64,000 nucleotides of DNA. Source: Leptobrachium leishanense (lineage: Eukaryota > Chordata > Amphibia > Anura > Megophryidae). The stretch is taken from positions 1-64,000 of the forward strand of contig RXON01001589.1 of NCBI GenBank assembly GCA_009667805.1. Reading direction: 5' to 3'. The notes under the pieces were generated by a model. The model saw nothing but the letters and a program-made list of their open reading frames with translations. It was not told where the DNA came from and did not search any database. The translations under genes and the position numbers were made by a program. Shown here in pieces: positions 28,854 to 61,540 of this stretch (its first letter is position 1; each line of letters starts with the position of its first letter).

Positions 28854-28857
28854 TATG

Positions 28858-29794: not shown

Positions 29795-29880
29795 AGTGTA
29801 AATAGGGATGAGCCGAACGCCCCCATGTTTGGTTCGCATTCGAACACGAACAATTTCAAAAGTTCGAGTTCGAACTCTAA

Positions 29881-30307: not shown

Positions 30308-30310
30308 TAA

Positions 30311-36562: not shown

Positions 36563-36965
36563 TAGGGATGGGCTGTTCGGGTTCGGACGGTTCGGAGTTC
36601 GACCCGAACTTTGGCAGTTCGAAAGTTCGCGAATTTCGAACTTTTTGGGCATGTTCGGTTCGGTTTCGAAAAAAAAAAGAAATTTTGAAAAAAGTATAGA
36701 AAATGCTTAAAAAAATACTAAAAAATCTAGAAATAAAGAGACTCTTTACTGCAGAATATTATAAGCAACGGTTTATTAGATATTGAATTAAAAACTAATG
36801 TGTACGTGGAAAGATTATCAACTCTAAATGACCTCTGTTCACAAACGGGCATAACACCAGGTGTTTTTAGTCTGACAATCAATTTGATACATTGTACAAT
36901 ATACTGAGGGTGGAGTGGTGTCTGGTGTCTGCTTCTGATTGAGATTTGAGAATTAATTTCCCTAA

Positions 36966-37390
36966 GGCTAGGGTCAGACTGAGGCAGTGCGAACGCGCGT
37001 TCTGGCGCACTTAATCACGGCCGTGCTAGCAGCAGATGCCGGGCAATGACGGCCAATATACGAAGTACGGTCGCACAAAAGTCCGGCTGCGCAACGCAAG
37101 TGGAAAATGAACGCATTTTTTCGAGAACGTGAAACCGCTGCTACAGACGTACAGAGTGCGCTGCGTCGGCTAGAGGCGTGTGTGCGTGATTAGGAGACGT
37201 CAGACGCTGCTAATGTCCGGCCAACATAACGTCCAGACACAAAAAGAGTTTTATTGATGATCCGTACAAAATCACGGACGAAAATGCGCATAGTATGACC
37301 ACTATCACGTATTCCGGGAAAAAATGCGTCCATTCGTTCGAACGCACTTTTTCACAGACAACATAAAAATGCGTTCATCTGACCCTAGCC
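36966..37390. mobile_element. GGCTAGGGTCAGAC MITE, copy 4
   Basis: A 425-bp element with terminal inverted repeats starting GGCTAGGGTCAGACTG and TAA on the left, TTA on the right. It is absent from the related compound element at 58136-61532, so it was inserted after the two separated, or lost from the other. Confidence 0.85.
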
Positions 37391-37475
37391 TTAAACATCC
37401 TAATATGCTACATTTAACTGGTGTTTGAAAAAAATCTAAAGCAATGTTATTTTTCACCTCGGGATTAAACATTCA

Positions 37476-38256
37476 CAGGGTTATTCAGAGAAAGGTGAAA
37501 CTCAGGAGAATGACTGGAGAATGAAAAATTCTAGGTCAAAATAGCCAAACCAGAAAAATTCTCCCCCTTTTTCTCACTTTCCAAATCGGCTATTTGGTCT
37601 AGATTGTTCTCTTCTCTTGCCAGTTCTCCTGGCTTTCACCTCTCTCTCAGGGTTGTTTAGAGAAGGTGAAAACCAGAGAATGGCAGGAAAAGAGAACAAT
37701 CTGGACCAAATAGCCGATTTGGAAAGTGAGATAAGGCTAGGGTCAGACTAACGCATTTTTCGCAGCGACCGTCAAAAAGTGCGTCCGAACGCATTGCTGT
37801 ATTTTTTCACGGATTGCGCGAAAACGGTCATACGATGCACATTTTTGTGCGTGATTTTTTTACGGATCCAAACCAGGAAACTTTGGGTGTCTGGACGTTA
37901 TGTTGGCCAGACATGAGCAGGGTCTGACATCTCCAAATCACGCACACACGCCGCTAGTGGACGCAGCGCACTCTGTACGTCCATAGTAGCGGTTCTGCGT
38001 TCTCGAAAAAATGCGTTCATTTTCCATTTGCGTTGTGCAGCCGGACTTTCGTGCGACCGTACTTCGTATATTGGCCGTTATTGCCCGTCATTTGCTGCTA
38101 GTGTGGCCGTGATTAAGTGCGCCTAAACGCACGTTACAAATTCACTAGTCTGACCCTAGCCTAAATGGGAGAATTTTTCTGGTTTGGCTATTTTGACCTA
38201 GAATTTTCCATTCTCCAGTCATTCTCCTGCTCTTCACCGCTCTCTGAATAACCCTG
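37476..38256. mobile_element. Foldback element with CAGGGTTATTCAGAG ends
   Basis: Outer arms CAGGGTTATTCAGAGAAAGG and, reversed, TCTCTGAATAACCCTG continue through AATTCTAGGTCAAAATAGCC. Inner arms pair CCAAATCGGCTATTTGGTC with its complement around a centre near 37655. A GGCTAGGG MITE sits in the right arm (37735-38161, 427 bp, TAA on both sides). A second partial copy starts at 38258. The same structure recurs at 59130-59888. Confidence 0.75.
37735..38161. mobile_element. GGCTAGGGTCAGAC MITE, copy 5
   Basis: 427 bp, TAA at 37732-37734 and 38162-38164, terminal repeats GGCTAGGGTCAGACTA. It occupies the same position as copy 8 (59390-59793) in the related compound element, so this insertion predates their separation. 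Confidence 0.85.
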
Positions 38257-38831
38257 ACAGGATTATTCAGAGAAAGGTGAAACTCAGGAGAATGACTGGA
38301 GAATGGAAAATTCTAGGTCAAAATAGCCAAACCAGAAAAATTATCCCATTTATCTCACTTTCCAAATCGGCTTTTTGGTCTAGAAGTTTCCATTCTCCTG
38401 CTTTTCACCGCCAAAAAATCAGTAAACTTTTTCTGCATGTCCGAAAATGTCTCCTCTTTTCATACAGACTGCCGCCCCAAGCAGTTGTTTATGGATAGAT
38501 TAAAGGAAAAGCATTTACCGTCATTTGAAATGGCATTTTTTTGTTTTTACATATTTCTATACATCCTAGAAATCCGCCACTTCACGGGCAGGTTATGGGG
38601 ACCTCCTAGGCATGATATTTGAAGGAATTTCTCATTTTTATTTTTAACCCTTATTTCATGGAAAACTCACTGTCCCTTTAAAAACGTTTTTTTTTTAACT
38701 TTTTGTCCTTGTTTCCGAATTTTCAGCCCCATTGACTTGCATGGGGGTTCGGGTTCGGGTTCAGACCCGAACAAATGGGAAGTTCGGGTTCGTGCTCGAA
38801 CCGAACTCGGGGTATATTCGGCTCATCCCTA

Positions 38832-39137
38832 ATAACAATATCTACACATTACCATATAATAACAATATCTACACATTACCATATATAACAATATCTATGC
38901 ATTGCCATATAATAATGATGTCTATACGTTACCATATAATACCAACATCTACACATTACCATATAATAACAATATCTATTCATTACCATATGATAACAAA
39001 ATCTACACATTATTACATATAGTAACAACATCTACACATTGCCATATAATACCAACATCTATACATTACCATATAATAACAATATCTATATATTACCATA
39101 TGATAACAAAATCTACACATTGCCATATGATATCAAC
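38832..39137. repeat. AT-rich 24-bp minisatellite, segment 2
   Basis: It continues the array of 35893-36562 (TATCTACACATTACCATATA type units, about 13 copies). It is cut off from segment 3 (40197-40275) by the hAT-like MITE at 39146-40196. Confidence 0.85.
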
Positions 39138-39145
39138 ATCTATAC

Positions 39146-40196
39146 CAGTGTTTCTCAAAGCTTTCCTCGGAACCCCCAACCAGGCCAGATTTTGCACATC
39201 ACCTTGGGGAAATGCAGACTGAATCCTGCCATCACTGAGCAGCAAATCATACCACCTGTGCTATGCTTCCCATATCTGGCACACTTGGCCTGTAAGGCTG
39301 GGGTCAGACCAGCGCACTTTTAACGTGCGTTCTGGCGCACATAATTACGGCCGCACTAGCAGCAGGTGACGGGCAATGACGGCCAATATACGATGTACGG
39401 TCGCACGAAAGTCCGGCCGCGCAACGCAAGTGGAAAACGAACGCATTTTTTCGAGAACGCCGAACCGCTAGTACGGACGTACAGAGTGCGCAGCTGCGGC
39501 ATAGCGGCGTGTGTGCGTGATTAGGAGACGTCAGACACTGCTAATGTCCAGCCTACATAACGTCCAGACGCAAAAAGAGTTTTATTGACGATCTGAAAAA
39601 ATCACGCACGAAAAATGCGCATCGTATGACCGTTTTCGCGCACTCCGTGAAAAAATACGTCAATTCGTTCGGACGCACTTTTTTACGTTCGCGTGTAAAA
39701 ATGCTTTCGTTTGACCCTAGCCTAAGGCTAGGGACAGATGAGCGCATTTTCTGCGGCCACCGTCAAAATGTACGTCGATGCGTGCGCACGCATTTTTTCA
39801 CGGAATACGCTTAAGTGGTCAGACGATGCGCAATTCTGGACGTATTTCATGACGATGGGGTGAAAAGAAGTCTAGGGAAATCCGGCTGTTTGAACGTTAT
39901 GTAGGCCGCACACTAGCAGCGTCTGACATCTCCTAATCACGCACACACGCTGCTATGCGGCCGCAGCGCACTCTGTACGTCAGTAGCAGCGGTTTAACGT
40001 TCTCGAAAAAATGCGTTCATTTTCCACTTGCGTTGCGCGGCCGGACTTTTGTGCGACCGTACTTCGTATATTGGCTGTCATTGCCCGGCATCTGCTGCTA
40101 GTGCGGCCGTGATTATGTGCGCCAGAACGCGCGTTCGCACTGCCTCAGTCTGACCCTAGCCTAAGCGGGTCCTGAGGACAGGTTTGTGAAACACTG
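39146..40196. mobile_element. hAT-like MITE with CAGTGTTTC ends carrying two tandem MITEs
   Basis: It starts CAGTGTTTCTCAAAGC and ends TTTGTGAAACACTG, with octamer flanks ATCTATAC (39138-39145) and ATCTAAAC (40197-40204), one mismatch. Only about 170 bp are its own sequence. The rest is two GGCTAGGG-family MITEs in tandem, 39296-39722 (427 bp) and 39726-40161 (436 bp), sharing a single TAA between them and TAA at both outer edges. Confidence 0.8.
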
Positions 40197-40275
40197 ATCT
40201 AAACATTACCATATGATAATAAAATCTATATATTACCATATAATAACAATATATATGCATGACCATATAATAACA

Positions 40276-40611
40276 GAATGTGGTGTTAATAAAGCTTGCA
40301 GTTTATGTAAAGGAAGCCAAATCCTGAGCAGTGGAGACGCCTAGTGCTGAAAAACCTCATTACAGCGAAATGAAATGTGGGCATAATAAAGGTGCGTCCC
40401 CAGCGTATTCAGTGACCAATTAATAAACAGAATTTAATGAAAGCGTAAAATATGTTAATATTGAAATATAAAAAATTTAAATTAATCTTAAATAATAATT
40501 CAAAATGTAATAAATTAATAACAATAACAAATGAATAAAGTGCAATTAGTGTTAAAAAATGACGAAGAATAAAGTGCAAACATAATGCTGCCAGTGTATG
40601 TTACTAATATA
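40276..40611. other. No gene recognised
   Basis: AT-rich interval between the 24-bp array and the Tc1 element. No structure seen. Confidence 0.3.
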
Positions 40612-40613
40612 TA

Positions 40614-42235
40614 CAGTGGCAAGAAAAAGTTTGTGAACCCTTTGGGATTACGTGGAGTTTTGCATGAATTGATCATAAAATGTCTCTGATCTTCATCTAA
40701 GTCACAACAATTTGAAAAACACAGTCTGCTTAAAATAATACAACACAAACATTATATGTTTTCATGTTTTTATTGAACATAACATGTAAACATTCACAGT
40801 GCAGGGTGGAAAAAGTATGTGAACCTTTGGATTTAATAACTGGTTGACCCTCCTTTGGCAGCAATAACCTCAACCAAACGTTTCCTGTAGTTGCAGATCA
40901 GATCTGCACAACGATCTGGAGTAATTTTGGACCACTCCTCTTCACAAAACTGTTTCAGTGTAGCAATATTCTTGGGATGTCTGGTGTGAATCGCTCTCTT
41001 AAGGTCATGCCACAGCATTTCAATCGGGTTGAGGTCAGGACTCTGACTGGGCCACTCCAGAAGGCGTATTTTGTTTTGTTGAAGCCATTCTTTTGTTGAA
41101 TTACTTGTATGCTTTTGATCATTGTCCTGTTGCATCACCCATCCTCTGCGGAGCTTCAGTTGGCGGACAAATGGTCTTACGTTTTCCTGCAAAATGTCTT
41201 GATAAACTCTGGAATTCATTTTTCCATCAATGACAACAATCCATCCAGGCCCTGAGGCAGCAAAGCAGTCCCAAACCATGATGCTCCCTCCACCATGTTT
41301 TACAGTGGGGATGAGGTTTTGATGTTGGTGTGCTGTGCCTTTTTTTCTCCTCACATACTGTTGTGTGTTTTTTCCAAAAAACTCAATTTTGGTTTCCTCT
41401 GTCCACAGAATATTTTGCCAGTAGTGCTGTGGAACATCCAGGTGCTCTTTTTCAAACTTCAAACGTGCTGCAATATTCTTTTTAGACAGCAATGGCTTCC
41501 TCCGTGGTGTCCTCCCATGTACTCCATTCTTGTTTAATGTTTTCCTTATTGTAGATGTGTCAACAAAAATGTTAGCATGTGCCAGAGATTTCTGTAAGTC
41601 TTTAGCTGACACTCTAGGATTCTTCTTTACCTCATTAGGCTTTCTGTGCTGTGCTCTTGCAGTCATCTTTACAGCATGACCACGCCTAGGCAAAGTAGCA
41701 ACAGTGCTGAACTTTCTGCATTTGTAGACAGTCTGTCTTACCATGGACACATGGACATCAAGGCTTTTGGAGATGCTTTTGTAAACCTTTCCAGCTTCAT
41801 GCAAGCCAACAATTCTTGATCGTAGGTCTTCTGAGTGCTCTTTTCTGCGAGGCATGGTTCACATCAGGCAGTGCTTCTTGAAACCAGTAAACCCAAAACT
41901 GGTGTGTGCTTTTAAAGGGCAGGACAGCTTTCAGCAACACATCCAATAATATCACACTGATTGGACTCAAGGTTGGCTCACTCCTGGCTCCAATTAGCTC
42001 TTGGAGAAGTCATTAGGCTAGGGGTTCACATACTTTTTCCACCCTGCACTGTGAATGTTTACATGTTCTGTTCAATAAAAACATGAAAACATATAATGTT
42101 TGTGTTGTATTATTTTAAGCAGACTGTGTTTTTCAAATTGTTGTGACTTAGATGAAGATCAGAGCACATTTTATGACCAATTCATGCAAAACTCCACGTA
42201 ATCCCATAGGGTTCACATACTTTTTCTTGCCACTG
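40614..42235 (-). mobile_element. Tc1-like transposon, nearly intact
   Basis: 1622 bp, with TA at both edges and inverted repeats of roughly 215 bp. Each arm has an outer motif (CAGTGGCAAGAAAAAGT then TGTGAACC) and an inner one (CAGGGTGGAAAAAGTATGTG), the two-direct-repeat layout known from Sleeping Beauty-type elements. One transposase gene lies on the minus strand. The arms differ at only a few positions, pointing to a young copy. Confidence 0.95.
40833..41855 (-). CDS. Tc1-like transposase, full length, first catalytic residue changed
   Basis: 340 residues from [20 protein letters not shown] to a stop after GGSTSY, the usual length. The N-terminal paired-like DNA-binding domain (about 1-115) includes a GRRP-like linker (LPRRGHAVK) and a basic stretch ([14 protein letters not shown]). 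The DDE domain shows [44 protein letters not shown] (Asp 244) and [16 protein letters not shown] (Glu 279), spaced 34 residues apart. The expected Asp at 153 is Glu here (WTEE instead of the family WTDE or WSDE), which should reduce or abolish catalysis. Otherwise the frame is unbroken. It would excise and insert TA-flanked DNA in the nucleus. Confidence 0.95.
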
Positions 42236-42340
42236 TATATATAATCCATATACACTAAAGGTGTGAACAAATACTATTAACAGCAATAATTATAAACATG
42301 ATGACGGATGAAGATACAGCGGCATTAATGAATATCCACA

Positions 42341-44268
42341 GCTGCCCAGATTGATCCTAATGGCGGTGCGCTCCATACTGACATATTCTGCGCTTTCTAT
42401 GTGCTGCCCAGATTGATCCTAATGGCGGTGCGCTCCATACTGACAAATTCTGCGTTTCTATGAGCTGTCCAGATTGATCCTAATGGCGGCGCGCTCCATA
42501 CTGACATATTCTGCGCTTTCTATGTGCTGCCAGATTGATCCTAATGGTGGCGCGCTCCATACTGACATATTCTGTGTTTTCTATTGAGCTGTCCAGATTG
42601 ATCCTAATGGCGGCGCGCTCCATACTGACATATTCTGCGCTTTCTATGTGCTGCCCAGATTGATCCTAATGGTGGCGCGCTCCATACTGACATATTCTGT
42701 GTTTTCTATGAGCTGCCCAGATTGATCCTAATGGTGGCGTGCTCCATACTGACATATTCTGTGTTTTCTATGAGCTGCCCAGATTGATCCTAATGGTGGC
42801 GTGCTCCATACTGACATATTCTGTGTTTTCTATGAGCTGCCCAGATTGATCCTAATGGTGGCGTGCTCCATACTGACATATTCTGCGCTTTCTATGAGCT
42901 GCCCAGATTGATCCTAATGGTGGCACGCTCCATACTGACATATTCTGCGGGTTTCTATGAGCTGCCCAGATTGATCTTATGGCGGCGCGCTCCATACTGG
43001 CATATTCTGCGCTTTCCATGTGCTGCCCAGATTGATCCTAATGGCGGCGCGCTCCATACTGACATATTCTGCGCTTTCCATGTGCTGCCCAGATTGATCC
43101 TAATGGCGGCGCGCTCCATACTGACATATTCTGCGGGTTTCTATGAGCTGCCCAGATTGATCCTATGGCGGCGCGCTCCATACTGACATATTCTGCGGGT
43201 TTCTATGAGCTGCCCAGATTGATCCTATGGCGGCGCGCTCCATACTGGCATATTCTGCGGGTTTCTATGAGCTGCCCAGATTGATCTTATGGCGGCGCGC
43301 TCCATACTGGCATATTCTGCGGGTTTCTATGAGCTGCCCAGATTGATCTTATGGCGGCGCGCTGCATACTGGCATATTCTGCGGGTTTCTATGAGCTGCC
43401 CAGATTGATCCTATGGCGGCGCGCTCCATACTGGCATATTCTGCGGGTTTCTATGAGCTGCCCAGATTGATCCTAATGGCGGCGCGCTCCATACTGACAT
43501 ATTCTGCGGGTTTCTATGAGCTGCCCAGATTGATCCTATGGCGGCGCGCTCCATACTGGCATATTCTGCGGGTTTCTATGAGCTGCCCAGATTGATCTTA
43601 TGGCGGCGCGCTCCATACTGGCATATTCTGCGGGTTTCTATGAGCTGCCCAGATTGATCTTATGGCGGCGCGCTCCATACTGGCATATTCTGCGGGTTTT
43701 ATGAGCTGCCAGATTGATCTTATGGCGGCGCGCTCCATACTGGCATATTCTGCGGGTTTCTATGAGCTGCCCAGATTGATCCTATGGCGGCGCGCTCCAT
43801 ACTGGCATATTCTGCGGGTTTCTATGAGCTGCCCAGATTGATCCTAATGGTGGCGCGCTCCATACTGGCATATTCTGCGGGTTTCTATGAGCTGCCCAGA
43901 TTGATCCTAATGGTGGCGCGCTCCATACTGACATAATCTGCGGGTTTCTATGAGCTGCCCAGATTGATCTTATGGCGGCGCGCTCCATACTGGCATATTC
44001 TGCGGGTTTCTATGAGCTGCCCAGATTGATCCTATGGCGGCGCGCTCCATACTGGCATATTCTGCGGGTTTCTATGAGCTGCCCAGATTGATCCTAATGG
44101 TGGCGCGCTCCATACTGGCATATTCTGCGGGTTTCTATGAGCTGCCCAGATTGATCCTAATGGCGGCGCGCTCCATACTGACATATTCTGGGTTTTCTAT
44201 GAGCTGCCCAGATTGATCCTAATGCCAGCGCGGCATGCTCCATACTGACATAATCTGCGCTTTCTGTA
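42341..44268. repeat. 62-bp minisatellite, about 31 copies
   Basis: The unit contains GCTGCCCAGATTGATCCTAA, TGGCGGCGCGCTCCATACTG and ACATATTCTGCGGGTTTCTA plus TGA. Two size classes alternate: 63 bp with CCTAATGG and 62 bp with CCTATGG or CTTATGG. Units of the left third end in GCGCTTTCTATG or GTGTTTTCTATG, those of the right two thirds in GCGGGTTTCTATG. No frame is maintained. Confidence 0.95.
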
Positions 44269-44593
44269 GGTGAATGTAAAGAAAGAAACAAGTGATTGGT
44301 AGTACCCATCCAATTATCCTCAGCTGCACCAGGACTTGTACATCACCTGTCCCAAACAAATCCTATTGTGCCCTGATTGTGTTTCACTTTGCACCTTTTT
44401 AAAGTTAGTTTTTCTATGTTCTCCTTTTCTTTCATCCTGCTTGTCTAGTTTCTACTTTGACTATTGTATGTCATTCTTAGAGAGATATTGGCAAACTATG
44501 GAAGTGCCCTTTGCTGAACGTTACAAGTCTAAATCCATGTTTTTCTTTACAGCCATAACCATGTACAGTAAGTTTTAATCCCTGACAGGTTAT
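44269..44593. other. No gene recognised
   Basis: Unique-looking sequence between the minisatellite and an L2 tail. An exon-like motif (TTTCTTTACAG) at 44545-44555 is not followed by a convincing coding exon. Confidence 0.3.
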
Positions 44594-44955
44594 TATTATT
44601 ATTATTATTATACTTTATTTATATAGCGCCAACATATTCTGCAGTGCTGAACAATGGGCATGATATAGACAGGGTTACAATACATTCAGACTGAACAACA
44701 TTTGATAAACTGATACATGAGGAAACGAGTGCCCTATTCCCATGGGAGCTCACAATCTAGAAGAGTTGGGGTAGAAACAATAGGGGAGGACTGCAATGTG
44801 AGAGTGATGGACTGGTTGGGGCAGTGATGTGTATTAGTGAGTTGGGTGGCAGACTTCCCTGTATATGAATGTCTTATACAAGAGGGAGAGGTGTAGATAG
44901 TGGAGGGGTTGGTGGTACAGAGGCAGGAGTTCCATTTTAGGATGAATGCAGAGGA
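44594..44955 (-). mobile_element. L2-clade LINE 3' end (5'-truncated)
   Basis: The minus strand runs from about 44955 through GATTGTGAGCTCCCATGGGA and TGTATTGTAACCCTGTCTAT to GGCGCTATATAAATAAAG and a terminal (ATT/AAT)n repeat at 44594-44612. This is the same 3' UTR as the L2 copies ending at 49449 and 60965. Only the last few coding residues remain. Confidence 0.8.
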
Positions 44956-46328
44956 AAAGAATAGGCCAGTTAGTCTTACGTCAGTAGTGGGGAAATTAAT
45001 GGAAACCATGTTAAAGGAAAGGATTGTTGAACATCTAAAAACACATAGATTACAGGATCAGAAACAACATGGGTTTACCTCAGGGAGATCATGCCAAACT
45101 AATCTTATTGATTTTTTTTGATTGGGTAACAAAAATAATAGACACAGGTGGTGCAGTAGACATTGCTTATTTAGATTTCAGTAAGGCTTTTGATACTGTT
45201 CCGCATAGAAGCTTATCAATAAATTGCAATCTTTGAGTTTAGATTCCAATATTGTTGACTGGATTAGGCAGTGGCTGAGTGACAGACAACAGAGGGTTGT
45301 GGTAAATGGAGTTTATTCGGCACAAGGTCTTGTTACCAGTGGGGTACCTCAGGGGTCAGTACTTGGACCCATTCTCTTTAATATTTTTATTAGTGATATT
45401 GCAGAAGGTATTAATGGAAAAGTATGTCTTTTTGCTGATGACACAAAGATTTGCAACAGGGTTGACGTTCCTGGAGGGATCAGCCAAATGACAAATGATT
45501 TAGGTAAACTAAAAAAATGGTCGGAGTTGTGGCAATTGAGTTTTAATGTGGATAAGTGCAAGATAATGCACCTGGGGCGTAAAAACCCAAGGGCTGAATA
45601 TAGAATATTTGATACAGTCCTAACCTCAACATCTGAGGAAAGGGATTTAGGGGTCATTATTTCAGAGGATCTAAGGGTAAGTAGTCAATGTAATAGAGCA
45701 GCAGGAAATGCTGGCAGAATGCTTGGTTGTGTAGGGAGAGGTATTAGCAGTAGGAAAAGGGAAGTGCTCATGCCACTGTACAGAGCACTGGTGAGACCTC
45801 ACTTGGAGTACTGTGTGCAGTACTGGAGACCGTATCTCCAGAAGGATATAGACCTCTTAGAGAGAGTTCAGAGAAGGGCTACTAAAATGGTGTACGGCTT
45901 GAAGGAGAAAAGTTACCAGGAAAGGCTTAATGATCTTAACATGTACAGCTTGGAAAAAAGACGAGACAGAGGAGATATGATAGAAACATTTAAATACGTA
46001 AAGGGAATCCACAAGGTAGAGGAAGGGAGTATATTTAAAAGGAAACAAAATAGCAAAACAAGAGGACATAGTCTTAGATTAGAGGGGCAAAGGTTTAAAA
46101 GTAACATCAGGAAGCATTATTTTACTGAGCAGGTGGTGGATACATGGAGCAGTCTTCCAGTAGAAGTGGTAGAGGCCAAAACAGTAACTGAATTTAAGCA
46201 AGCATGGGATAGGCATAAGGCTATCCTAAACAAAAGATAAATCCAGGTAAAGTATCCATGTAATTGGGCGACTAGATGGGCCGAAAGGTTCTTATCTGCC
46301 CACATTTTTCTATGTTTCTATGTTTCTA
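44956..46328 (+). mobile_element. CR1 family 1, 5'-truncated copy
   Basis: Begins inside the RT (ATAGGCCAGTTAGTCTTACG) directly against the L2 tail and ends with the TTTCTATG tandem tail at about 46305-46328. It is the same family as 1819-5990, in opposite orientation. Confidence 0.9.
45224..46240 (+). CDS. CR1 family 1 RT C-terminal two thirds, open frame
   Basis: 338 residues: the RT palm from NIVDWIRQWLSDRQQRVV through [20 protein letters not shown] and CLFADDTKI (catalytic Asp pair near residue 70), then the CR1 C-terminal region ([74 protein letters not shown]). The start is artificial. The upstream part (44956-45223, with YLDFSKAFDTVPHR) is in a different frame because of two small indels near 45115 and 45211. 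Confidence 0.85.
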   Translation: MQSLSLDSNIVDWIRQWLSDRQQRVVVNGVYSAQGLVTSGVPQGSVLGPILFNIFISDIAEGINGKVCLFADDTKICNRVDVPGGISQMTNDLGKLKKWSELWQLSFNVDKCKIMHLGRKNPRAEYRIFDTVLTSTSEERDLGVIISEDLRVSSQCNRAAGNAGRMLGCVGRGISSRKREVLMPLYRALVRPHLEYCVQYWRPYLQKDIDLLERVQRRATKMVYGLKEKSYQERLNDLNMYSLEKRRDRGDMIETFKYVKGIHKVEEGSIFKRKQNSKTRGHSLRLEGQRFKSNIRKHYFTEQVVDTWSSLPVEVVEAKTVTEFKQAWDRHKAILNKR

Positions 46329-50138: not shown

Positions 50139-50143
50139 CGGTG

Positions 50144-51548: not shown

Positions 51549-52567
51549 CTAACAAGGACAGGGGGTGGGCCTCTCCACACGGGGCAAGCATGTGGTCAAC
51601 CAGTAATGCCAGGAGCGGTAGTGCTCAGCGACCTTACCCTGGGACAGAGCGACCTGTTCTTTGGCTGATCGGATTGTTTCCACTTCATGCAACCATACAG
51701 TAAGGGGTGGGGCAGTTGGTTTACGCCAGAACATCGGTATAACCAGACGTGCCGCGTGCAGAAGTCTGATGGTGATTGATTTCCGGAATATTTCGGGTGG
51801 GTCTTCAGTGTGATTAAGTAGGCAGTATTCTGGGGTAAATGGGGGTGTCAGTTCCGCGACGTCGCAGAGGCAAATATGGACGTAGTGCCAAAACTCAGCA
51901 ATGACAGGGCAGTCCCACCATATATGGAGTGTTGAAGCATTAGGTGCGTTACATCTCCAGCATTTGCTGGCTTTCCCATCAGCATAGTGGCTCAGGATTT
52001 GGGGTGTTTTATGCCACCTCGTGAGCACTCTATAGTTGGCCTCCTGAACCCTCACTGCTGTGGAACTGGAGTGTGCTAATTGACAAATAGCGCGCCATTG
52101 GTGGTCCTCAAAGGTAAAATTTAATTTGCGTTCCCAGCTAGCATGGGCGGAGCTGGTCTGAGAGGACGTGGTTTGGAGTATGTCGTACAGTAAAGAGAGG
52201 CAATGTGATGGGTATCTGCCTCCCTCTATCAGTGTCTCGTATTGCGTGAGTGGTCTGATATATTCAGGTAGTGGGGCGAGAGATTGTAGTGACTGACTGA
52301 GTCGTGGTGGTGGAACCTCATTAGGAATGAGCCTGCATGTGGAATGGGCAGGTGATCACAAGGGATTGGGCTCAACTCATTTAGAAAGTGCTTAGGTCGT
52401 GGGGGGATAGGTAGGCCCTCTGTGGTCATTGGGGATAGGGACCTAGAAAAGGTGGGCAACCACTGCAGGGGCAGGAGGGGCGAAGGAAAGGGAGCAATGC
52501 CGGCAGAGCGCGTCAAAGAGCGCCAGGTTTTGAAAGTGGCGTGTATTAGGGGGTATGGGTCAGCCAT
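51549..52567 (-). pseudogene. L1 ORF2: C-terminal domain
   Basis: The minus-strand piece 52567-52229 is a divergent linker. 52055-51549 holds EANYRVLTRWHKTPQILSHY and a Cys-rich motif: SKCWRCNAPNASTLHIWWDC, then PVIAEFWHYV. This CX2C...H...C arrangement is typical of the L1 ORF2 C-terminus. The stop is followed by the 3' UTR. Confidence 0.85.
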
Positions 52568-52572
52568 GGTCC

Positions 52573-53120
52573 TGTAACGTTGGGGGCTTCCAGCCCTACC
52601 TGTGTGCTTGAGGACAGCAAGTCTGATGCTGCTCGCTGACCACTGCCCGGTTTAAATGGAGACAGGCAGGGAGGTGATTGCATGAGGTGTGGCTTGAGTG
52701 GGGGGCATGGCCTGGTGAAGGTCTTTATAAACCCTCAGTTAGTTTCAGAAGTTGCCAGATCGTGGTTATCCATCCTGAGCTCCTTGTACCTGACTGCTAT
52801 ATTGATTTGCCCTGTTACTGACCTCTGCTTGTGTTCTGACCATTCTGCCTTCTGTTGCCCTAGACTATTTGCTTGTACTACGCTACTGCTCTGATACCGA
52901 CCCGGCTATTCCATTTGACCATTCTGAACTCTGTATTCCTGATTCTGGCTCGGCTGGCTCCTCTCCGTATTGTTAACCCTTTTCTGTCTAGCTAGTTTAC
53001 CTGGCCAATTCTAAGGACCAGACAGATAGGGATCATTCACAGCTACACTGTTGGTAGCTTCTGGGTTTTGTGGAGTGTTGGGGGTTAAGTACTGCGTGGT
53101 GGGATCCGGGAACCGTGACA
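52573..53120 (+). repeat. 5' LTR of the gag-only element
   Basis: 548 bp. It has a TATA-like CTTTATAAACC at about 52721-52731, which reads CTTTAAAAACC in the 3' LTR. The two LTRs also differ at GGACAGCAAG/GGACGCAAG and TTTGCCCTG/TTTAACCTG, among a few others. Confidence 0.9.
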
Positions 53121-53833
53121 TTACGATCTGGCCAATATGGATCCTGAATCGTACTGCACACCTGGAACCAGTTGGGGTTGCACCCCCGCTTGATATACCT
53201 GTGTCCCCTGTCGTTCAGACATCCCAGGTACACATAATGAGGCAGCCAGTACATAGTGAGCGAGCAGTAATTCTAGAGGTGCTGGAGATCCTGAGAGGAG
53301 CTAACAAGCTCATTACTCAGCACCTGGATATCCTGTATGCAAGTTTGCTGCAACCTCCTAGGGACGTCTTCCCAAAGGAGCCTGTTCCAGTTCCAGTTAA
53401 AGGTTCCAGAGGACCCCTGACCCTGGAGGAAAGGGTATGGAGGAAGACTCAGGGCTTATGCTTTTATTGCGGTTCTTTCCTGCATAAAAGAATGGACTGT
53501 CAATTGCGCCCCCAGAAGTTACCCTCCATGTTCCAGCCTTACCAGGCCCCAGAGTCCACTGCCCTGCACGTCGCAGGATGTCCAAAATCCACTGCCCAAC
53601 AGGGAGAGACCAGGTGTAATGCCCAGCAGTGGGAAGTCAAGAGTGCTGCCCTGCAGCATGAACAATCTAAGGTGGCTGCTCAGCAGCACAAAGAATCTGA
53701 GTCTGCTGTTTGTCAGCTTCAAGTACTGTCCATGTCTACTGTGCCTAAGCTAGCAGTTCCAGTCAAGAGTGCTGCCCTGCAGCACGAACAAATCAAGTCC
53801 ACTGCCTCGCAGTGCGAGATCTGGTCCACCTAA
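53121..53833 (+). pseudogene. Gag-like protein with zinc knuckle
   Basis: The likely start is the ATG at 53138 (MDPESYCTPGTSWG), a typical gypsy Gag beginning, which is one frame away from the main open frame. That frame carries LDIPVSPVVQTSQ, LEVLEILRGANKLITQHLDI, and GPLTLEERVWRKTQGLCFYC continuing into a CX2CX4HX4C knuckle (CFYCGSFLHKRMDC, about 53459-53500). After that come Gln/Ala/Ser-rich imperfect repeats (SAALQHEQ, STAQQ). The capsid major homology region is not recognisable, so the gene looks internally deleted as well as frameshifted. Confidence 0.7.
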
Positions 53834-53925
53834 CCAGTTTGAGAGCCAGTCCACTGCACAGCAGTTCAAGAGACAGTGCCAAGCCAAGGTGGTTGCAAAG
53901 CACTGTGAGATCAAGATTGTTGCAG

Positions 53926-54355
53926 AGCCGGTAGCTGCCCAGCCACGCTCACCCGAGCCGGTAGCTGCCAAGCCACGCTCACCCGAGCCGGTAGCTGCCA
54001 GCCACGCTCACCCGAGCCGGTAGCTGCCAAGCCACGCTCACCCGAGCCGGTAGCTGCCAACCACGCTCACCCGAGCCGGTAGCTGCCAAGCCACGCTCAC
54101 CCGAGCCGGTAGCTGCCAAGCCACGCTCACCCGAGCTGGCTGTTGCCAAGCCACGCTCACCCGAGCTGGCTGTTGCCAAGCCACGCTCACCCGAGCTGGC
54201 TGTTGCCAAGCCACGCTCACCCGAGCTGGCTGTTGCCAAGCCACGCTCACCCGAGCTGGCTGTTGCCAAGCCACGCTCACCCGAGCTGGCTGTTGCAAGC
54301 CGCTCACCCGAGCTGGCTGTTGCCAAGCCACGCTCACCCGAGCTGGCTGCTGCAC
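53926..54355. repeat. 30-bp minisatellite in the gag region, about 14 copies
   Basis: Two unit types: GAGCCGGTAGCTGCCAAGCC plus ACGCTCACCC on the left, and GAGCTGGCTGTTGCCAAGCC plus ACGCTCACCC on the right. Some units are 29 or 27 bp, which changes frame. In-frame units read EPVAAKPRSP. The downstream 54356-55040 continues with less regular GAGTCGCCGCAGAGCCGTG-type units. It appears to be an expanded proline/alanine-rich part of gag. Confidence 0.9.
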
Positions 54356-55043
54356 CATGACAGAGTCGCCGCAGAGCCGTGATGAGGTCGCTGACCCACA
54401 GAGCCGTGCTGCTGCCGCCATGTCCGAGTCGCCGCAGAGCCATGCTGTTTCTGCCGTGTCCAAGTCACCACAGAGTCGTGCTAAAGGCGCTGCCCCTCCT
54501 GTCCTTGCCAAGGGTGCTACCCAACCGGTCCACACCAAGGGCGCTGCCCCACCGAGCCCAGCTGTCCCGGCGTCTTCGAGCCCAGCTGTCCCGGTGTCTT
54601 CAAGCCCAGTGGTTCCAGTCCAGTCACCGCAGAGCCGTGCCAAGGTCCCTGACCCACAGATCCGTGCTGTTGCCGCCATGACTAAGTCGCAGCAGAGCCG
54701 TGCTGGGGTCACTGACCCGCAGATCCGTACCACTGGTGCCGGGTTCATGTTGCCGCAGTGCAGAGTGGACACTGTTGCTGTCCATTCCGCGTCCTGTACC
54801 AGGGGTAGGAGATGCAAAAGGACTGGTGCCAGTGTCTTCAAACCTGGACCCAGTTTTGGCTCCCACCCTCATAGACGGGGGCGTCTTGAGGAGGATGACG
54901 ACTCTGATTGGGACCTCAGGGGACTTTGGTGACTGGTGTACGCGAGGGCTCTACGTGCCTACAAGACCCATTGACTATTTTCTTGTCATTTTTCTTGTTG
55001 TCCTCTTTTGAGCATCCGGCGTCTGCTCGTGGAGAGGGGGTAC

Positions 55044-55589
55044 TGTAACGTTGGGGGCTTCCAGCCCTACCTGTGTGCTTGAGGACGCAAGTCTGATGCT
55101 GCTCGCTGACCACTGCCCGGTTTAAATGGAGACAGGCAGGGAGGTGATTGCATGAGGTGTGGCTTGAGTGGGGGGCATGGCCTGGTGAAGGTCTTTAAAA
55201 ACCCTCAGTTAGTTTCAGAAGTTGCCAGATCGTGGTTATCCATCCTGAGCTCCTTGTACCTGACTGCTATATTGATTTAACCTGTTACTGACCTCTGCTT
55301 GTGTTCTGACCATTCTGCCTTCTGTTGCCCTAGACTATTTGCTTGTACTACGCTACTGCTCTGATACCGACCCGGCTATTCCATTTGACCATTCTGAACT
55401 CTGTATTCCTGATTCTGGCTCGGCTGACTCCTCTCCGTATTGTTAACCTTTTCTGTCTAGCTAGTTTACCTGACCAATTCTAAGGACCAGACAGATAGGG
55501 ATCATTCACAGCTACACTGTTGGTAGCTTCTGGGTTTTGTGGAGTGTTGGGGGTTAAGTACTGCGTGGTGGGATCCGGGAACCGTGACA
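55044..55589 (+). repeat. 3' LTR of the gag-only element
   Basis: 546 bp, partner of 52573-53120, followed directly by the target duplication GGTCC and the resuming L1 sequence. Confidence 0.9.
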
Positions 55590-55594
55590 GGTCC

Positions 55595-56579
55595 TTTGTG
55601 TGGAAATTGGCAGCCAGGGGAGGCAGGACAGAGGACACCGCACCGACCCTTGTTCTATTGCAACCCATGGTGTGATTAGTGAGCTAGCAGACCATTCCAC
55701 TATGCATTGTAGGTGTGAGGTCACATAATAGTGCCAAAAGTGAGGGAGTGCCATGCCTCCCAACTGTTTAGGGGCCATCAACAGGGCCAGACTGATGCAT
55801 GTTTTTTTAGAATTCCAGACATAGTTGGAAATCATTGTGTGGAGCTGTGCGAAGAAGGTGGGGGGTACGATGATAGGAGCGCCTGAAAGAGGTAAAGGAC
55901 GCGGGGCAGTATGTTCATTTTCACCACATTAACTCCTCCGAACCACGAGATATGCGGAAAGGACCACTGTTGTAGGTCAACCGCTAGGGCTGCAAGCAAA
56001 GGTTTGTAGTTCGCATGGAATAGGTCTTTACAGGTCGCTGTGAGGGTGATCCCTAAGTACTTAAGGCCACTATTGCACCACCGATACGGGAACAGGTGCC
56101 AAAGATTTGCCTGTAGGTCAGAAGGGACATTTAGGGGTAGGATTTCAGATTTTTGCATATTAATACGGAGGTTGCTAATGGTGCCATAATCCGTGAAAAG
56201 TCTAGTTAAGTGCTGCAATGACTCCGCTGGTCTACGGATGAAAAATAACATGTCGTCTGCATATGCCGCCACACGGTGTTCCTTCCCTGCCACTGACACT
56301 CCGTGTAATTGGGGGTGTGAGCGGATCACCTGCAGGAAAGGCTCAAAGGTGAGGGCAAACAAAAATGGGGAGAGGGGGCATCCCTACCTCGTGCCATTGT
56401 TGATATGAAAGGGGGGGCGAGAGGACCCCATTTACATTAAGTCTGGCCGAGGGGTTAGTATACAGCACCCTTATCCATGCCAACATGTTACTACCTAAGC
56501 CTATATGGCGCAATGTGCTGAAAAGTAATTGCCAACTGACACGGTCGAAGGCCTTTTCTGCGTCAGTGGATAAAAGCAG
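55595..56579 (-). pseudogene. L1 ORF2: RT palm and thumb
   Basis: Minus strand: LLSTDAEKAFDRVSW (first catalytic Asp), GLGSNMLAWIRVLYTNPSAR, a region with the G-C-P-L-S-P type block in broken frames, MFALTFEPFLQVIR, HRVAAYADDMLFFIRRPAES (YADD), and ILPRVLYLFQALLSSYPP. After a frameshift near 55835 it ends with NYVWNSKKTCISLALLMAPK and LGGMALPHFWHYYVTS. The piece stops at the LTR-element target site GGTCC. Confidence 0.85.
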
Positions 56580-58062
56580 TAGACATGTGCACAGCACAAA
56601 ATTTCGTTTTGAACTAATGGATTAGTCCTACAATGCAATTTATTTAGTTGCTAAAGAAATTCGTTTTCAGTTCTTTAGTATGAAAACTAATTTCATTCAT
56701 CTGAAAACCAGTGGATACAATTACTATTGTAGTGGCTCCTCAGAGGGCTGAGATCGCTGCTTGTTACAGTATCTCTCACTCTCAGCACAATGTGTCAGGC
56801 AAAGCTGTTACAGTAACTGACTGCTGCTCATCCCAGCGCTCAGAGTTTCAGTAAAACTAGTAAATAATATTTTTATATATAAGAGGTTATAACAATATTA
56901 TTTCCTAGTTTTACTGAAACTGAGCGCTGTTACAGTCAGTTACTGTAACAGCTGAGCCGGATACATTGTACTGAGAGATAATATAACAAGCAGCCGATCT
57001 CAGCGCTCACAGCCACTGGATTTAAAGGGCTAAAAAAAAGGCTCCTCTCTGTATAATGTAGATAACATCCTCCTGCATTAATACCCCTCTCTGTATAATG
57101 TATGCAACATCCACCTGCATTAATTAATACCCCTCTCTGTATAATGTATAGAACATCCTCCTGAATTAATGTCCCTCTATAAATAGAACAATCCTCCTCA
57201 ATTTATACATTTCTCTGTATAATGTATATAACCTCCTCCTGCATTAATACCCCTCTCTGTATAATGTATAGAACATCCTCCTGCATTCATTAATGCCCCT
57301 CTCTGTATAGAACATCCTACTCAGTAGGACCTACTGCATTGGCATGTGGAGGGTGCAGAATTTCGGAATGCAATGCTTATCCATCACAGGAGAGGGAACT
57401 TTTACTTAAAGTTTGCATCTCTGTGGGGGGAGAGAGACAGGAATATAAAAGCAGGGGAGAGGGAAAATATTAACATAAATCGGTCTGAAAGCTCAGAGAA
57501 GAGATGACTGGTGCAAATTTATTTTTATAATAAAATTAAGCACTTTAAATCCAGGGAAAACATTCAAATAAATCACACTGACAGCTCCTAATAACAGAGT
57601 AACTGTGAGTTGGATACTAAATGTATCAGACGTAAAAAAAAAACTTTATAACAAACCGCACTGGGAGAGGAGAGGGACTTTATATAAAATGTGTAGTATA
57701 GATGAGAAAAGTGGATAGTGCTCCTGGATAATATAAAATGTATCAGATCTAAGCCCCTATTATGCAGAGCGGGAGGGGAGATAACACACATTTATAAAGT
57801 CCCTCTCTTCATTACTGGTCTTCATTACTGGTCTTCATTACTGGTCTTCATTACTGGTCTTCATTACTGGTCTCCTTCACTGGTCTCCTTCACTCATCAA
57901 TGTAATATCACAAAAAGGACAAACTAAAATGTAGTGCATTTTATTTTAGTTTCTTTCGTTTTTTGTACTGAGCAGTTTCGTATCTCTTGAGTCATACTAA
58001 AACTAAATTATCCCAAAATTTGGACTAAATCGTTTTAGTACTAAACCGAATGCACATGTCTA
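56580..58062. mobile_element. hAT-like element with TAGACATGTGCA ends
   Basis: It starts TAGACATGTGCACAGC and ends GAATGCACATGTCTA, with the octamer AAAAGCAG on both sides (56572-56579, 58063-58070). Inside are a foldback (about 56745-57010) around GTTTTACTGAAAC / GTTTCAGTAAAAC, a roughly 45-60-bp tandem repeat with CCCCTCTCTGTATAATGTAT (57040-57310, about six copies), and a 13-bp repeat CTTCATTACTGGT (57807-57898, five copies plus variants). No transposase frame. It interrupts the L1 RT. Confidence 0.9.
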
Positions 58063-58070
58063 AAAAGCAG

Positions 58071-58135
58071 CATAGGGTCATTTTTATTTTTAGAAGCAAA
58101 ATGGATCAGGTTAATTGCCCGCAAATGGTGTTTGC
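58071..58135 (-). pseudogene. L1 ORF2: 65-bp RT island between two insertions
   Basis: The minus strand encodes RAINLIHFASKNKNDPM, the residues that link the FFPGRE block (61541 side) to LLLSTDAEKAFDRV (56571 side). It is bounded by the 8-bp duplications AAAAGCAG and GTGTTTGC of its two neighbours, so two transposons landed 65 bp apart. Confidence 0.85.
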
Positions 58136-58470
58136 TAGGGATGAGCTGTTCGGGTTCGGACGGTTCGGAGTTCGACCCGAACTTTGGCAGTTCGAAAGTT
58201 CACGAATTTCGAACTTTTTGGGCCTGTTCGGTTCGGGTTCGAAAAAAAAAAGACATTTTGAAAAAAGTATAGAAAATGCTTAAAAAAATACAAAAAAATC
58301 TAGAAATAAAGAGACTCTTTACTGCAGAATATTATAAGCAACGGTTTATTAGATATTGAATTAAAAACTAATGTGTACGTGGAAAGATTATCAACTCTAA
58401 ATGACCTGTGTTCACAAACAGGCATAACACCAGGTGTTTTTAGTCTGGTAATCAATTTGATACAATGTAC

Positions 58471-58972
58471 TGTCACTGGGGGCGCTATAGCGCGGTCCTC
58501 TAGGGCGAATTATGACACACAAAGTCCTTTAAATGGTGAAATCTTGCACCCTTTATTGCAGCAAGAGCAGAAAATAAAACATAACACAAACAAAATCCTG
58601 GTTCACCTGAACACTCCCTAACTCACTTGAAAGTCCCTCTCTCACTAGCAGGGATCCTACCCAAAAGTGACACCAACCTTTGGTATCTCGTACTGCAGAC
58701 TCTCTCTGCTGCTTCTCATTACTCTCTGGAGCAGCAGCACTCTGTGCTGATCAGTCTCACCCGGTGCCCATTCTAATCTTTCCCCTGCGTGGGAATCCTT
58801 CTCAACTCCTGCACAGTCTCATCTACCCCTCCCTCAAGCAGGAGCCATTTAAGCCCTTAATTGCAGGGACACCTGCAGCAACACAAAACACATTCCCTCC
58901 TGGGGGTTATTATCTAAAACCTAAAAACAAAATACAGGGGAATACACAGTGCAATCCATGCACTACATCACA
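58471..58972 (-). repeat. Solo LTR
   Basis: Plus-strand ends are TGTCACTGGGGGCGC and CTACATCACA, flanked by GTAC on both sides (58467-58470, 58973-58976). AATAAAGGGTGC reads on the minus strand near 58550, suggesting minus orientation. It is missing from the paralogous position in 36563-38831 (about 36897-36903), which shows the empty site. Confidence 0.7.
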
Positions 58973-59129
58973 GTACACTAAACGGAGGTACTGAGGTGGT
59001 GGCGTGGTGTCTGTTTCTGATTGAGATTTGAGAATTAATTATCCTAAAACATCCTAATATGCTGCATTTAACTGGTGTTTGAAAAAAATCTAAAGCAATG
59101 TTATTTTTCACCTCGGGATTAAACATTCA

Positions 59130-59888
59130 CAGGGTTATTCAGAGAGCGGTGAAAAGCAGGAGAATAACTGGAGAAGTGAAAATTCTAGGTCAAAATAGCC
59201 AAACCAGAAAAATTCTCCCATTTATCTCACTTTCCAAATCGGCTATTTGGTCTAGATTGTTCTCTTCTCTTGCCAGTTCTCCTGGCTTTCACCTCTCTCT
59301 CAGGGTTGTTCAGAGAAAGGTGAAAACCAGGAGAATGGCAGGAAAAGAGAACAATCAGGACCTAATAGCCGATTTGGAAAGTGAGATAAGGCTAGGGTCA
59401 GACTAACGCATTTTTCGTCCGAACGCATTGCCGTATTTTTTCACGGATTGCGCGAAAACGGTCATACGATGCGCATTTTTGTGCGTGATTTTTACGGATG
59501 CAAACCAGGAAACTTTGGGTGTCTGGACGTTCTGTTGGCCGGACATGAGCAGGGTCTGACATCTCCAAATCACGCACACACGCCGCTAGTGGACGCAGCG
59601 CACCATGTACGTCCGTACTAGCGGTTCTGCGTTCTCGAAAAAATGCGTTCATTTTCCACTTGCATTGCGCAGCCGGACTTTCGTGCGACCGTACTTCGTA
59701 TATTGGCCGTCATTGCCCGTCATTTGCTGCTAGTGCGTCCGTGATTAAGTGCGCCTAAAAGCACGTTAAAAATTTGCTAGTCTGACCCTAGCCTAAATGG
59801 GAGAATTTTTCTGGTTTGGCTATTTTGACCTAGAATTTTCCATTCTCCAGTCATTCTCCTGCTCTTCACCGCTCTCTGAATAACCCTG
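59130..59888. mobile_element. Foldback element with CAGGGTTATTCAGAG ends, second copy
   Basis: Same layout as 37476-38256, including a GGCTAGGG MITE in the same place (59390-59793, 404 bp, TAA on both sides). Then a second partial copy starts at 59890 and is interrupted by an L2 fragment. Confidence 0.75.
59390..59793. mobile_element. GGCTAGGGTCAGAC MITE, copy 8
   Basis: 404 bp with a short internal deletion relative to the 427-bp copies (after GCATTTTTCG). TAA on both sides. Orthologous in position to copy 5. Confidence 0.85.
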
Positions 59889-59916
59889 ACAGGGTTATTC
59901 AGAGAAAGGTGAAACT

Positions 59917-60739
59917 CTCTACCCCTGATCTCTCTCCCCCTGTCCTTTCAAAAGTCAGTGACTGTTTATCTGGCATCTCCTCCTGGATGGCCTCCCACCA
60001 CCTAAAGATCAACATGTCAAAGACTGAACTCCTACTTATTCCTCCCTCCAATGACTCCCCACCTCCTGACTTCTCGATCACGGTGGAGGGTATCACCATC
60101 TCCCCATCAAACCAAGTTCGTTGTCTTGGAGTTACACTTGACTCTGCTCTTTCCTTCATCCCCCACATCCAATCTCTTTCCTCCTCCTGCCGATACCAAC
60201 TGCGTAATATTTCCAGAATTCAGCCATTTCTTACCGCTGTCACCACAAAACAACTCATACACGCCCTGGTAATCTCCCGACTCGACTATTGCAATAATCT
60301 CTTATCTGGCCTCCCTCTGTCCCACCTCTCCCCCCTACAATCCATCCTGAATACCTCCGCCAGGCTAATTCACCTCACCCGCCGCTCTGTCTCTGCCGCT
60401 CCCCTCTGCGAGTCCCTTCACTGGCTCCCCATCCACTGCAGAATTACGTTCAAAATCCTTATCTTTACCTACAAAACCTTCACTAACTCAGCTCCCCACT
60501 ACCTGTCCTCACTAATCAGCAAATACACCCCAGTCCGCTCCCTAAGGTCAAACAGCGACCTGCGCCTAGCTTCTCCCCGCATCACCTCTTCCCATGATAG
60601 ACTGCAGGATTTCTCACGCGCAGCCCCCACTCTCTGGAACGCTCTCCCTCGTACTGTCAGACTTTCCCCTAACTTCTCTTCCTTCAAACGCTCCCTTAAA
60701 ATGTTCCTATTTAGGGAAGCCTACCACCCAACTCACTGA
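59917..60739 (+). pseudogene. L2 RT C-terminal region, long open piece
   Basis: About 274 open residues starting within the RT thumb: LKINMSKTELLLIPPSND, VRCLGVTLDSALSFIPHI, TAVTTKQLIHALVISRLD, the YCNNLLSGLPLSHLSPLQSI block, LHWLPIHCRITFKILIFTYK and PRTVRLSPNFSSFKRSLKMF. It lacks the catalytic Asp residues because of 5' truncation, so it is inert, but the open frame over 0.8 kb suggests recent insertion. Confidence 0.85.
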
Positions 60740-60965
60740 CGCAACCATCAATCACTCTCACCTTACAGTCCTTTCCTCCTGTTTCCAACCCCAACCCTCC
60801 CAGATTGTGAGTTCCTATGGGAATAGGGCCCTCATCTCCTCCTGTACTGTTTGTCAAATGTTGTTCAATGTATTGTAACCCTGTCTATACTGTGCCTATT
60901 GTACAGCACTGCGGAATATGCTGGCGCTTTATAAATAAAGAATAATAATAATAATAATAATAATA
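59917..60965 (+). mobile_element. L2-clade LINE, 5'-truncated
   Basis: Contains the RT C-terminal part, the UTR and the (AAT)n tail ending near 60965. It is inserted between GGTGAAACTC and ATCTCACTTTC of a foldback element whose uninterrupted version is at 38258-38430. The intervening bases of that element (about 85) are missing, so insertion came with a target deletion. Confidence 0.9.
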
Positions 60966-61540
60966 AATCTCACTTTCTAAATTGGCTTTTTGGTCTAGAA
61001 GTTTCCATTCTCCTGCTTTTCACCGCCAAAAAATCAGTAAACGTTTTCTGCGTGTCCGAAAATGTCTCCTCTTTTCATACAGGCTGCCGCCCCAAGCAGT
61101 TGTTTATGGATAGATTAAAGGAAAAGCATTTACCGTCATTTGAAATGTCATTTTTTGGTTTTTACATATTTCTATACATCCTAGAAATCCGCCACTTCAC
61201 GGGCAGGTTATGGGGACCTCCTAGGCACGATATTTGAAGGAATTTTTCATTTTTATTTTTAACCCTTATTTCATGGAAAACTCACTGTCTCTTTAAAAAC
61301 ATTTTTTTTTTTTACTTTTTGTCCTTGTTTCCTGTCCCCCAGGGCACTACCCGGACCCCCATACACTTTTTATGGCAAATATCTAGCATATATGCCCTCT
61401 TGGAGGGCACTCTAAAAACCGAATTTTCAGCCCCATTGACTTGTATGGGGTTAGAGTTCGGGTTCGGATCAGAACATTTGGAAAGTTCGGTTTCGGCTTC
61501 GAACCGAACTCGGAGTGTTCGGCTCATCCCTAGTGTTTGC

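What the first reader, a model, noticed from the sequence alone, without database searches (positions are those of the whole stretch)
36563..61532. Two compound hAT-like elements share nested insertions, implying transposition with cargo
36563-38831 and 58136-61532 have different perfect or near-perfect 8-bp duplications (ATAACAAT, GTGTTTGC). Yet they share the foldback element and the same MITE at the same internal position (37735 and 59390). The shared nested insertions must have been present before the two were placed. Later private events are MITE copy 4 in one, and a solo LTR plus L2 in the other.
Basis: partly seen in the sequence, partly recalled or inferred. Interest (0 to 1): 0.75.

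Follow-up and report, generated by a model that had tools for sequence, protein, structure and literature searches.

The report
Amplified hAT transposon carrying nested MITE
The two elements are copies of one very numerous "jumping gene" family that picked up a smaller mobile element before it spread, so one transposon has carried another through this genome; the principle is known, but this case shows its steps unusually clearly.

Summary
Confirmed and enlarged. 36563-38831 (E1) and 58136-61532 (E2) are hAT-type elements with TAGGGATG/CATCCCTA ends and perfect, different 8-bp target duplications; in-register homology stops at their ends. They belong to a ~1.92-kb family. Of 41 loci examined (39 fetched plus E1, E2), 35 show both ends and 33 of these have duplications matching at 7-8 of 8 positions (consensus nTnnnnAn). 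The H/MITE junction occurs at 7,629 genome sites (reversed control 0). The MITEs nested in 24 composites form one clade (100/100): one insertion, then a burst.

One correction. The "foldback" is not a second insertion into a finished short hAT. It is a cluster of ~180-bp near-palindromic units (H+ H- H+) also found, without the MITE, in longer hAT relatives. Its right edge is an internal-deletion breakpoint, undeleted in longer relatives and in a third hAT element of the window (29803-35296). A 1,127-bp single-H element with a perfect duplication has the same breakpoint and no MITE.

Most likely: long H-bearing hAT, internal deletion, MITE insertion at TAA, then amplification in trans. The autonomous partner was not identified, and how H first entered is open. 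Piggyback spread is known (for example MER6).

The parts
36563..38831 (+). E1: composite non-autonomous hAT-type element, 2,269 bp
   Evidence: TIR TAGGGATG/CATCCCTA, TSD ATAACAAT on both sides; 97.6% to the 1,918-bp consensus
36555..36562 (.). left TSD of E1 (ATAACAAT)
   Evidence: unfilled site in the same satellite array at 36094 and 36395
38832..38839 (.). right TSD of E1 (ATAACAAT)
36966..37390 (-). private second MITE copy in E1 (TAA at 36963-36965; TTA at 37391-37393)
   Evidence: falls outside the clade of the nested MITEs
37475..37734 (+). H1 (+) and first half of H2 (-): near-palindromic units of the 'foldback'; 37732-37734 is the left TAA of the MITE
37735..38161 (+). nested MITE in E1, target TAA 37732-37734 / 38162-38164
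   Evidence: the unfilled site GTGAGATAAATGGGAGAATTTTTCT stands (as reverse complement) twice in the same consensus, at 555 and 1337
38162..38411 (+). second half of H2 (-) and H3 (+, truncated)
38412..38831 (+). right hAT part of E1; 87 bp (consensus 1721-1807) deleted at about 38716
58136..61532 (+). E2: composite element, 3,397 bp with private inserts
   Evidence: TSD GTGTTTGC on both sides; 96.2% to consensus
58128..58135 (.). left TSD of E2 (GTGTTTGC)
61533..61540 (.). right TSD of E2 (GTGTTTGC)
58471..58972 (.). private 502-bp insert in E2, TG..CA, flanked by GTAC: compatible with a solo LTR
   Evidence: anatomy only
59129..59389 (+). H1 (+) and first half of H2 (-) in E2; 59387-59389 is the left TAA of the MITE
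59390..59793 (+). nested MITE in E2, target TAA 59387-59389 / 59794-59796
59918..60966 (+). private insert in E2 replacing consensus 1289-1354; LINE-like reading frame, ends in an AAT run
   Evidence: no Pfam domain found
61027..61532 (+). right hAT part of E2
29803..35296 (-). E3: third hAT relative in the window, no match to H, with 54-bp tandem repeats and two MITE copies; keeps the undeleted right subterminal sequence
   Evidence: TSD AGTGTAAA on both sides; right part 90% to consensus, homology starting at consensus 1416

Best explanation
E1 and E2 are two of thousands of copies of one non-autonomous hAT-type family. Proposed history: (1) an older, longer hAT relative carried arrays of a ~180-bp near-palindromic unit H. 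(2) An internal deletion joined the H array (..CACCGC) to the right subterminal region (CAAAAAATC..), giving short elements. (3) An H+ H- H+ arrangement arose or was retained, and one Harbinger-like MITE inserted at TAA in the H- unit. (4) This 1.92-kb element was mobilised by hAT transposase supplied in trans and amplified, carrying H cluster and MITE as passive cargo. (5) Single copies later took private hits. Shown by sequence: copies with TSDs at scattered sites (4), private hits (5), one origin of the nested MITE in the copies examined, and existing structures that match the stages of 1-3. Inferred: the order of 2 and 3, the cut-and-paste mechanism, and the source of transposase.
For: 8-bp TSDs at 33 of 35 two-ended copies (30 perfect), T at position 2 in 29 of 33 and A at position 7 in 29 of 33. 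H/MITE junction at 7,629 sites and left hAT/H junction at 7,813 sites, up to 2 mismatches, reversed controls 0. Of 97 exact left-junction sites typed in from the 100 listed (those on C1 up to 52.1 Mb), 61 have an exact H/MITE junction 217-321 bp on, 47 of them at 258 bp. The nested MITEs of 24 composites form one clade, 100/100, against 9 other MITE copies. The 22 consensus copies are 97.0-98.8% to the consensus, with mean pairwise divergence 3.3%, about twice the distance to the consensus, as in a burst from few masters. Long relatives L070-L073 carry H units with no MITE in the H- unit. The single-H element L075+L057 is 1,127 bp with TSD GTTGGGAT on both sides and the composite's own H/right-end breakpoint. 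The undeleted form of that region is at 5,968 sites and, with one base more, in E3. hAT dimerisation domain (PF05699): 150 matches from 150 scored of 23,420 candidates, the listed rows over the cut-off, open frames up to 687 aa.
Against: No hAT element lacking H at this left site was found, so how H entered the hAT is unknown: 0 sites for an exact gapped pattern, which an older mutated site would escape, and in the joined-flank search none of 41 matches reaches more than about 8 bases across the join (40 scored of 78 candidates). The 39 loci were the best matches to E1, so consensus and age lean to E1's subfamily; a second right-junction variant has 4,297 sites. I did not find a short H+ H- H+ element without the MITE, but did not search for one directly, so the order of deletion and MITE insertion rests on one complete and one partial single-H element. 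L033 and L035 show both ends without a matching TSD. Of 16 left-junction loci chosen for lacking an exact H/MITE junction nearby, 3 lack the MITE (L048, L054, L057).
Confidence: 0.86

Rival explanations
1. E1 and E2 arose by segmental duplication of one locus, and the shared interior only shows that.
For: Both lie in one window and share their internal parts.
Against: In-register homology ends at the element ends and the TSDs differ. The 500-bp flanks of E1 and E2 match none of the other flanks among 35 two-ended loci (low-complexity sequence masked). E1 and E2 are 5.86% apart, farther than E1 is from any of the 22 other copies in the alignment; two of the 22 are slightly farther from E2.
Confidence: 0.01
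2. The MITE inserted independently many times into the same TAA of H (hotspot), or spread between elements by gene conversion.
For: This MITE family uses TAA targets (5 of 7 window copies have TAA on both sides), and H units appear to recombine (L044, L054, L058).
Against: The 24 nested MITEs form one clade with a star-like inside, 100/100, and 47 of 61 paired junctions have exactly the same spacing. Conversion between some copies is not excluded but not needed.
Confidence: 0.04
3. The foldback is an independent transposon that inserted into a pre-existing short hAT.
For: H occurs outside this hAT (L064 has one H match alone in 3 kb). H has inverted ends CAGGGTTATTCAGAGA, like those of an ~0.9-kb sequence inside L071 that also lies at 25648-26532 of the window (91%), so H may itself descend from a mobile element that entered the hAT lineage earlier.
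Against: I see no direct duplication at the edges of the H cluster (CATTCA|CAGGG and CACCGC|CAAAAA). Its left junction is shared with longer hAT relatives, its right edge is a deletion breakpoint relative to L071, L072 and E3, and no unfilled hAT was found.
Confidence: 0.1
4. The whole 1.92-kb element is an original unit and the MITE-like part is native, later escaping as a MITE.
For: The 22 consensus copies contain it.
Against: The unfilled site is present in H1 and H3 of the same element and in the H- unit of long relatives. MITE copies with their own targets lie elsewhere in the window.
Confidence: 0.02

Closest known systems
MER6 / MER6A (mariner-type MITE carrying part of a V-SINE; PMC6887750)
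   Same: A non-autonomous DNA transposon with a piece of another mobile element inside that multiplied with it (abstract and section 2.4 read).
   Different: Mariner ends and SINE cargo there; hAT ends, Harbinger-like MITE and H palindrome cluster here, with intermediates still present in one genome.
Xstir and miDNA4 of Xenopus (tandem repeats inside MITEs; described in PMC12628747)
   Same: Repeats inside a non-autonomous element that change in number and travel with it (passages of the review read; the original papers were not seen).
   Different: miDNA4 is a Tc1/mariner MITE; here a hAT-type element, with the H units in both orientations and a second transposon nested in them.
hAT superfamily non-autonomous elements
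   Same: 8-bp duplications of nTnnnnAn type, TAGGGATG/CATCCCTA ends (the hAT rule itself is recalled).
   Different: Large self-complementary interior with nested MITE; no identified autonomous partner.
PIF/Harbinger-type MITEs
   Same: 3-bp TAA duplication, GGCTAGGGTCAGAC inverted ends (the family rule is recalled).
   Different: Here one copy became a fixed passenger of a hAT element.

Membership tests
hAT superfamily (non-autonomous member) | 8-bp target duplication | tested here: met
   33 of 35 two-ended copies with 7-8 of 8 matching, 30 of them perfect; random pairs 66 of 82,000
hAT superfamily (non-autonomous member) | target consensus nTnnnnAn (rule recalled) | tested here: met
   T at position 2 in 29 of 33, A at position 7 in 29 of 33
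hAT superfamily (non-autonomous member) | short terminal inverted repeats beginning YARNG-like (rule recalled) | tested here: met
   TAGGGATGAGC at the left end and GGCTCATCCCTA at the right end of the consensus
hAT superfamily (non-autonomous member) | autonomous partner with hAT transposase and the same ends | tested here: inconclusive
PIF/Harbinger MITE (the nested element) | 3-bp TWA target duplication (rule recalled) | tested here: met
   TAA on both sides in 5 of 7 window copies, TAA/TTA and TAA/TGA in the other two
PIF/Harbinger MITE (the nested element) | related Harbinger transposase gene in the genome | not tested
   none
Foldback element (the H cluster) | own target duplication at the outer edges of the inverted repeats | tested here: not met
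   no direct repeat seen at CATTCA|CAGGG .. CACCGC|CAAAAA; right edge is a deletion breakpoint
Segmental duplication | homology continuing in register past the element ends | tested here: not met

The most novel reading that the evidence does not exclude
The H palindromes are not passive cargo. Because H units change number and orientation inside these hAT elements (H+ H- H+ in the composite, four H+ and one H- in L070, duplicated H/MITE blocks in L044), hAT excision and gap repair may itself build them, and the resulting foldback interior may favour the amplification burst.
Probability: 0.1. Interest if true: 0.55.

Novelty: new member of a known kind. Interest (0 to 1): 0.35.

Why it matters
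Structures matching the successive stages (long element, deletion derivative, nested insertion, burst) are present as separate copies in one genome, so piggyback amplification of one transposon by another can be followed step by step. The MITE inside now has thousands of copies that its own transposase probably did not make, which would mislead estimates of MITE activity. The principle itself is known.

Tried and rejected
Independent foldback insertion: looked for a short hAT without H by a joined-flank query and a gapped exact pattern; none found. The uninterrupted-foldback DNA query gave no candidates; the tool skips very common words, so this shows nothing, and patterns were used instead. 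The pattern for an uninterrupted H- unit has 12,170 sites with up to 2 mismatches, but this count includes H1 units of composites, which differ from it at one base, so it is not a count of MITE-free elements. Segmental duplication and repeated MITE insertion: rejected by flanks and by the tree. Rfam found nothing in the window at its gathering scores. Literature: six searches gave MER6 and the satellite review as useful precedents; one search found no paper with all its terms and the 20 papers listed were unrelated. I did not find this family in those searches, but they cover open-access papers only, and no repeat library (Repbase, Dfam) was available.
Full report
Observation. E1 (36563-38831) and E2 (58136-61532) have TAGGGATG/CATCCCTA ends and perfect 8-bp duplications, ATAACAAT and GTGTTTGC. 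In-register homology between them begins and ends at those ends. E1 sits in a 27-bp satellite, and the sequence of the unfilled site is present in the same array. Both hold the MITE at the same TAA (37735 and 59390) within the same cluster of inverted repeats. E1 also has a second MITE and an 87-bp deletion; E2 has a 502-bp TG..CA insert flanked by GTAC and a LINE-like insert that replaced 66 bp. Pfam found no domain in the LINE-like frame, so L2 is unconfirmed.

Genome copies. The window lies in an unnamed 3.54-Gb genome. A search with E1 gave 293 matches, with 40 of 12,878 first-look candidates scored. I fetched the 39 scored loci other than E1 itself. Of 41 loci including E1 and E2, 35 show both ends; 30 have perfect and 33 have 7-8 of 8 matching duplications, with T at position 2 in 29 of 33 and A at position 7 in 29 of 33. 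Random pairs in the same loci reach 7 of 8 in 66 of 82,000. Six loci do not show both ends in the fetched stretch (one, L044, because the stretch began inside the element), and L033 and L035 have both ends but no matching duplication. Twenty-two copies of 1,870-1,936 bp give a 1,918-bp consensus; they are 97.0-98.8% to it, E1 97.6% and E2 96.2%. The 500-bp flanks of the 35 loci gave 44 matches, several of them tandem repeats within or between loci; I see none in register beside the elements, and none involves E1 or E2 (low-complexity sequence masked).

Counts. The 31-bp H/MITE junction occurs at 7,629 sites and the 30-bp hAT/H junction at 7,813 sites with up to 2 mismatches; reversed controls are 0. 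These are sites, not full elements; L044, for example, holds two H/MITE blocks. From the listings of exact sites on C1 up to 52.1 Mb, 61 of 97 hAT/H sites have an H/MITE site 217-321 bp further on, 47 of them at 258 bp. I had fetched 16 of the 34 unpaired ones; 13 contain the MITE at least in part and 3 do not: L048, L054, L057.

What the foldback is. It consists of three ~180-bp units H+, H-, H+, each nearly palindromic, the third truncated; the MITE lies in H-. The unfilled MITE site stands twice in the same consensus, in H1 and H3. Six loci with an uninterrupted H- type sequence were cut out: one with a lone H match (L064), one ordinary composite (L065), and four longer relatives (L066-L069). 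Refetched as L070-L073, the four show left hAT sequence, two to six H matches, more interior with an inverted copy of part of hAT positions 111-231, and in three of the four right hAT sequence. None has the MITE in an H- unit; L070 has a MITE elsewhere, in its left part. L071, L072 and E3 carry ..ATAATTTAGCC(C)AAAAAAATCAC.. where the composite has ..CACCGCCAAAAAATCAG..; that undeleted form is at 5,968 sites. The composite is therefore best read as an internal-deletion derivative at this point. A complete 1,127-bp element with one H, no MITE and duplication GTTGGGAT shares the breakpoint; a second, partial one has it too. No hAT without H at the left site was found. The interior of L071 includes ~0.9 kb that is 91% identical to window 25648-26532 and has CAGGGTTATTC-type ends like H, so H may descend from a mobile element that entered the hAT lineage earlier; this was not resolved.

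One MITE insertion. MITEs of 24 composites form one clade against 9 other copies, support 100/100, with a star-like inside; the bootstrap had not fully settled. Mean pairwise divergence of 22 copies is 3.3%; E1 and E2 differ by 5.9%, more than E1 from any of the 22.

Mechanism. Target duplications with the hAT-type consensus at scattered sites show that the composites with TSDs were each placed as a unit. The longest stop-to-stop frame in E1 is 101 aa, so transposase must come in trans.

Limits. The 39 loci are those most similar to E1, so consensus and divergence describe E1's subfamily. A second right-junction variant has 4,297 sites.

Known relatives. MER6 is a mariner MITE that spread part of a SINE (abstract and section 2.4 read). 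Xstir and miDNA4 in Xenopus are MITEs with internal repeats (passages of PMC12628747 read). This case is of that kind, with hAT ends and a nested MITE.

Coordinates of duplications and targets were read again from the window. Changes made then: E3 has two MITE copies, not three; the joined-flank result, the loci without both ends and the flank matches are stated more exactly; the possible mobile origin of H was added.

Noticed in passing
29803-35296: A third hAT relative (minus strand, duplication AGTGTAAA on both sides) carries arrays of a 54-bp satellite and two MITE copies. The junction leading into its 54-bp array occurs at 885 genome sites with up to 3 mismatches, so this may be an amplified hAT that carries a satellite.
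   Followed up: partly
21127-22884: A second, longer array of the same 54-bp satellite; my TIR and 8-bp duplication scan found no element around it.
   Followed up: no
25648-28858: A large inverted-repeat region whose arms match the interior of the long hAT relative L071 at 81-94% and include hAT positions 109-231; it has CAGGGTTAT-like ends similar to those of H.
   Followed up: partly
L044 (whole locus): A composite with two H/MITE blocks, one MITE interrupted by a further MITE, suggesting internal duplication by recombination between H units.
   Followed up: partly
L070 3992-4501: An inverted copy of the right hAT part, beginning with TAGGGATG, lies directly beside a right-part fragment in this long relative (coordinates in the reverse complement of the locus).
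   Followed up: no
40836-41858: Open frame (minus strand, 341 codons) with Tc1-type transposase domains HTH_Tnp_Tc3_2, DDE_3 and HTH_SB.
   Followed up: no
9954-11834 and 45209-46237: Two frames with a reverse transcriptase domain (RVT_1), LINE-like in my reading; 6437-7381 (minus) has RNase H domains of reverse-transcriptase type.
   Followed up: no
39295-40163: Two MITE copies of the same family lie head to head, sharing one TAA at 39723-39725.
   Followed up: no
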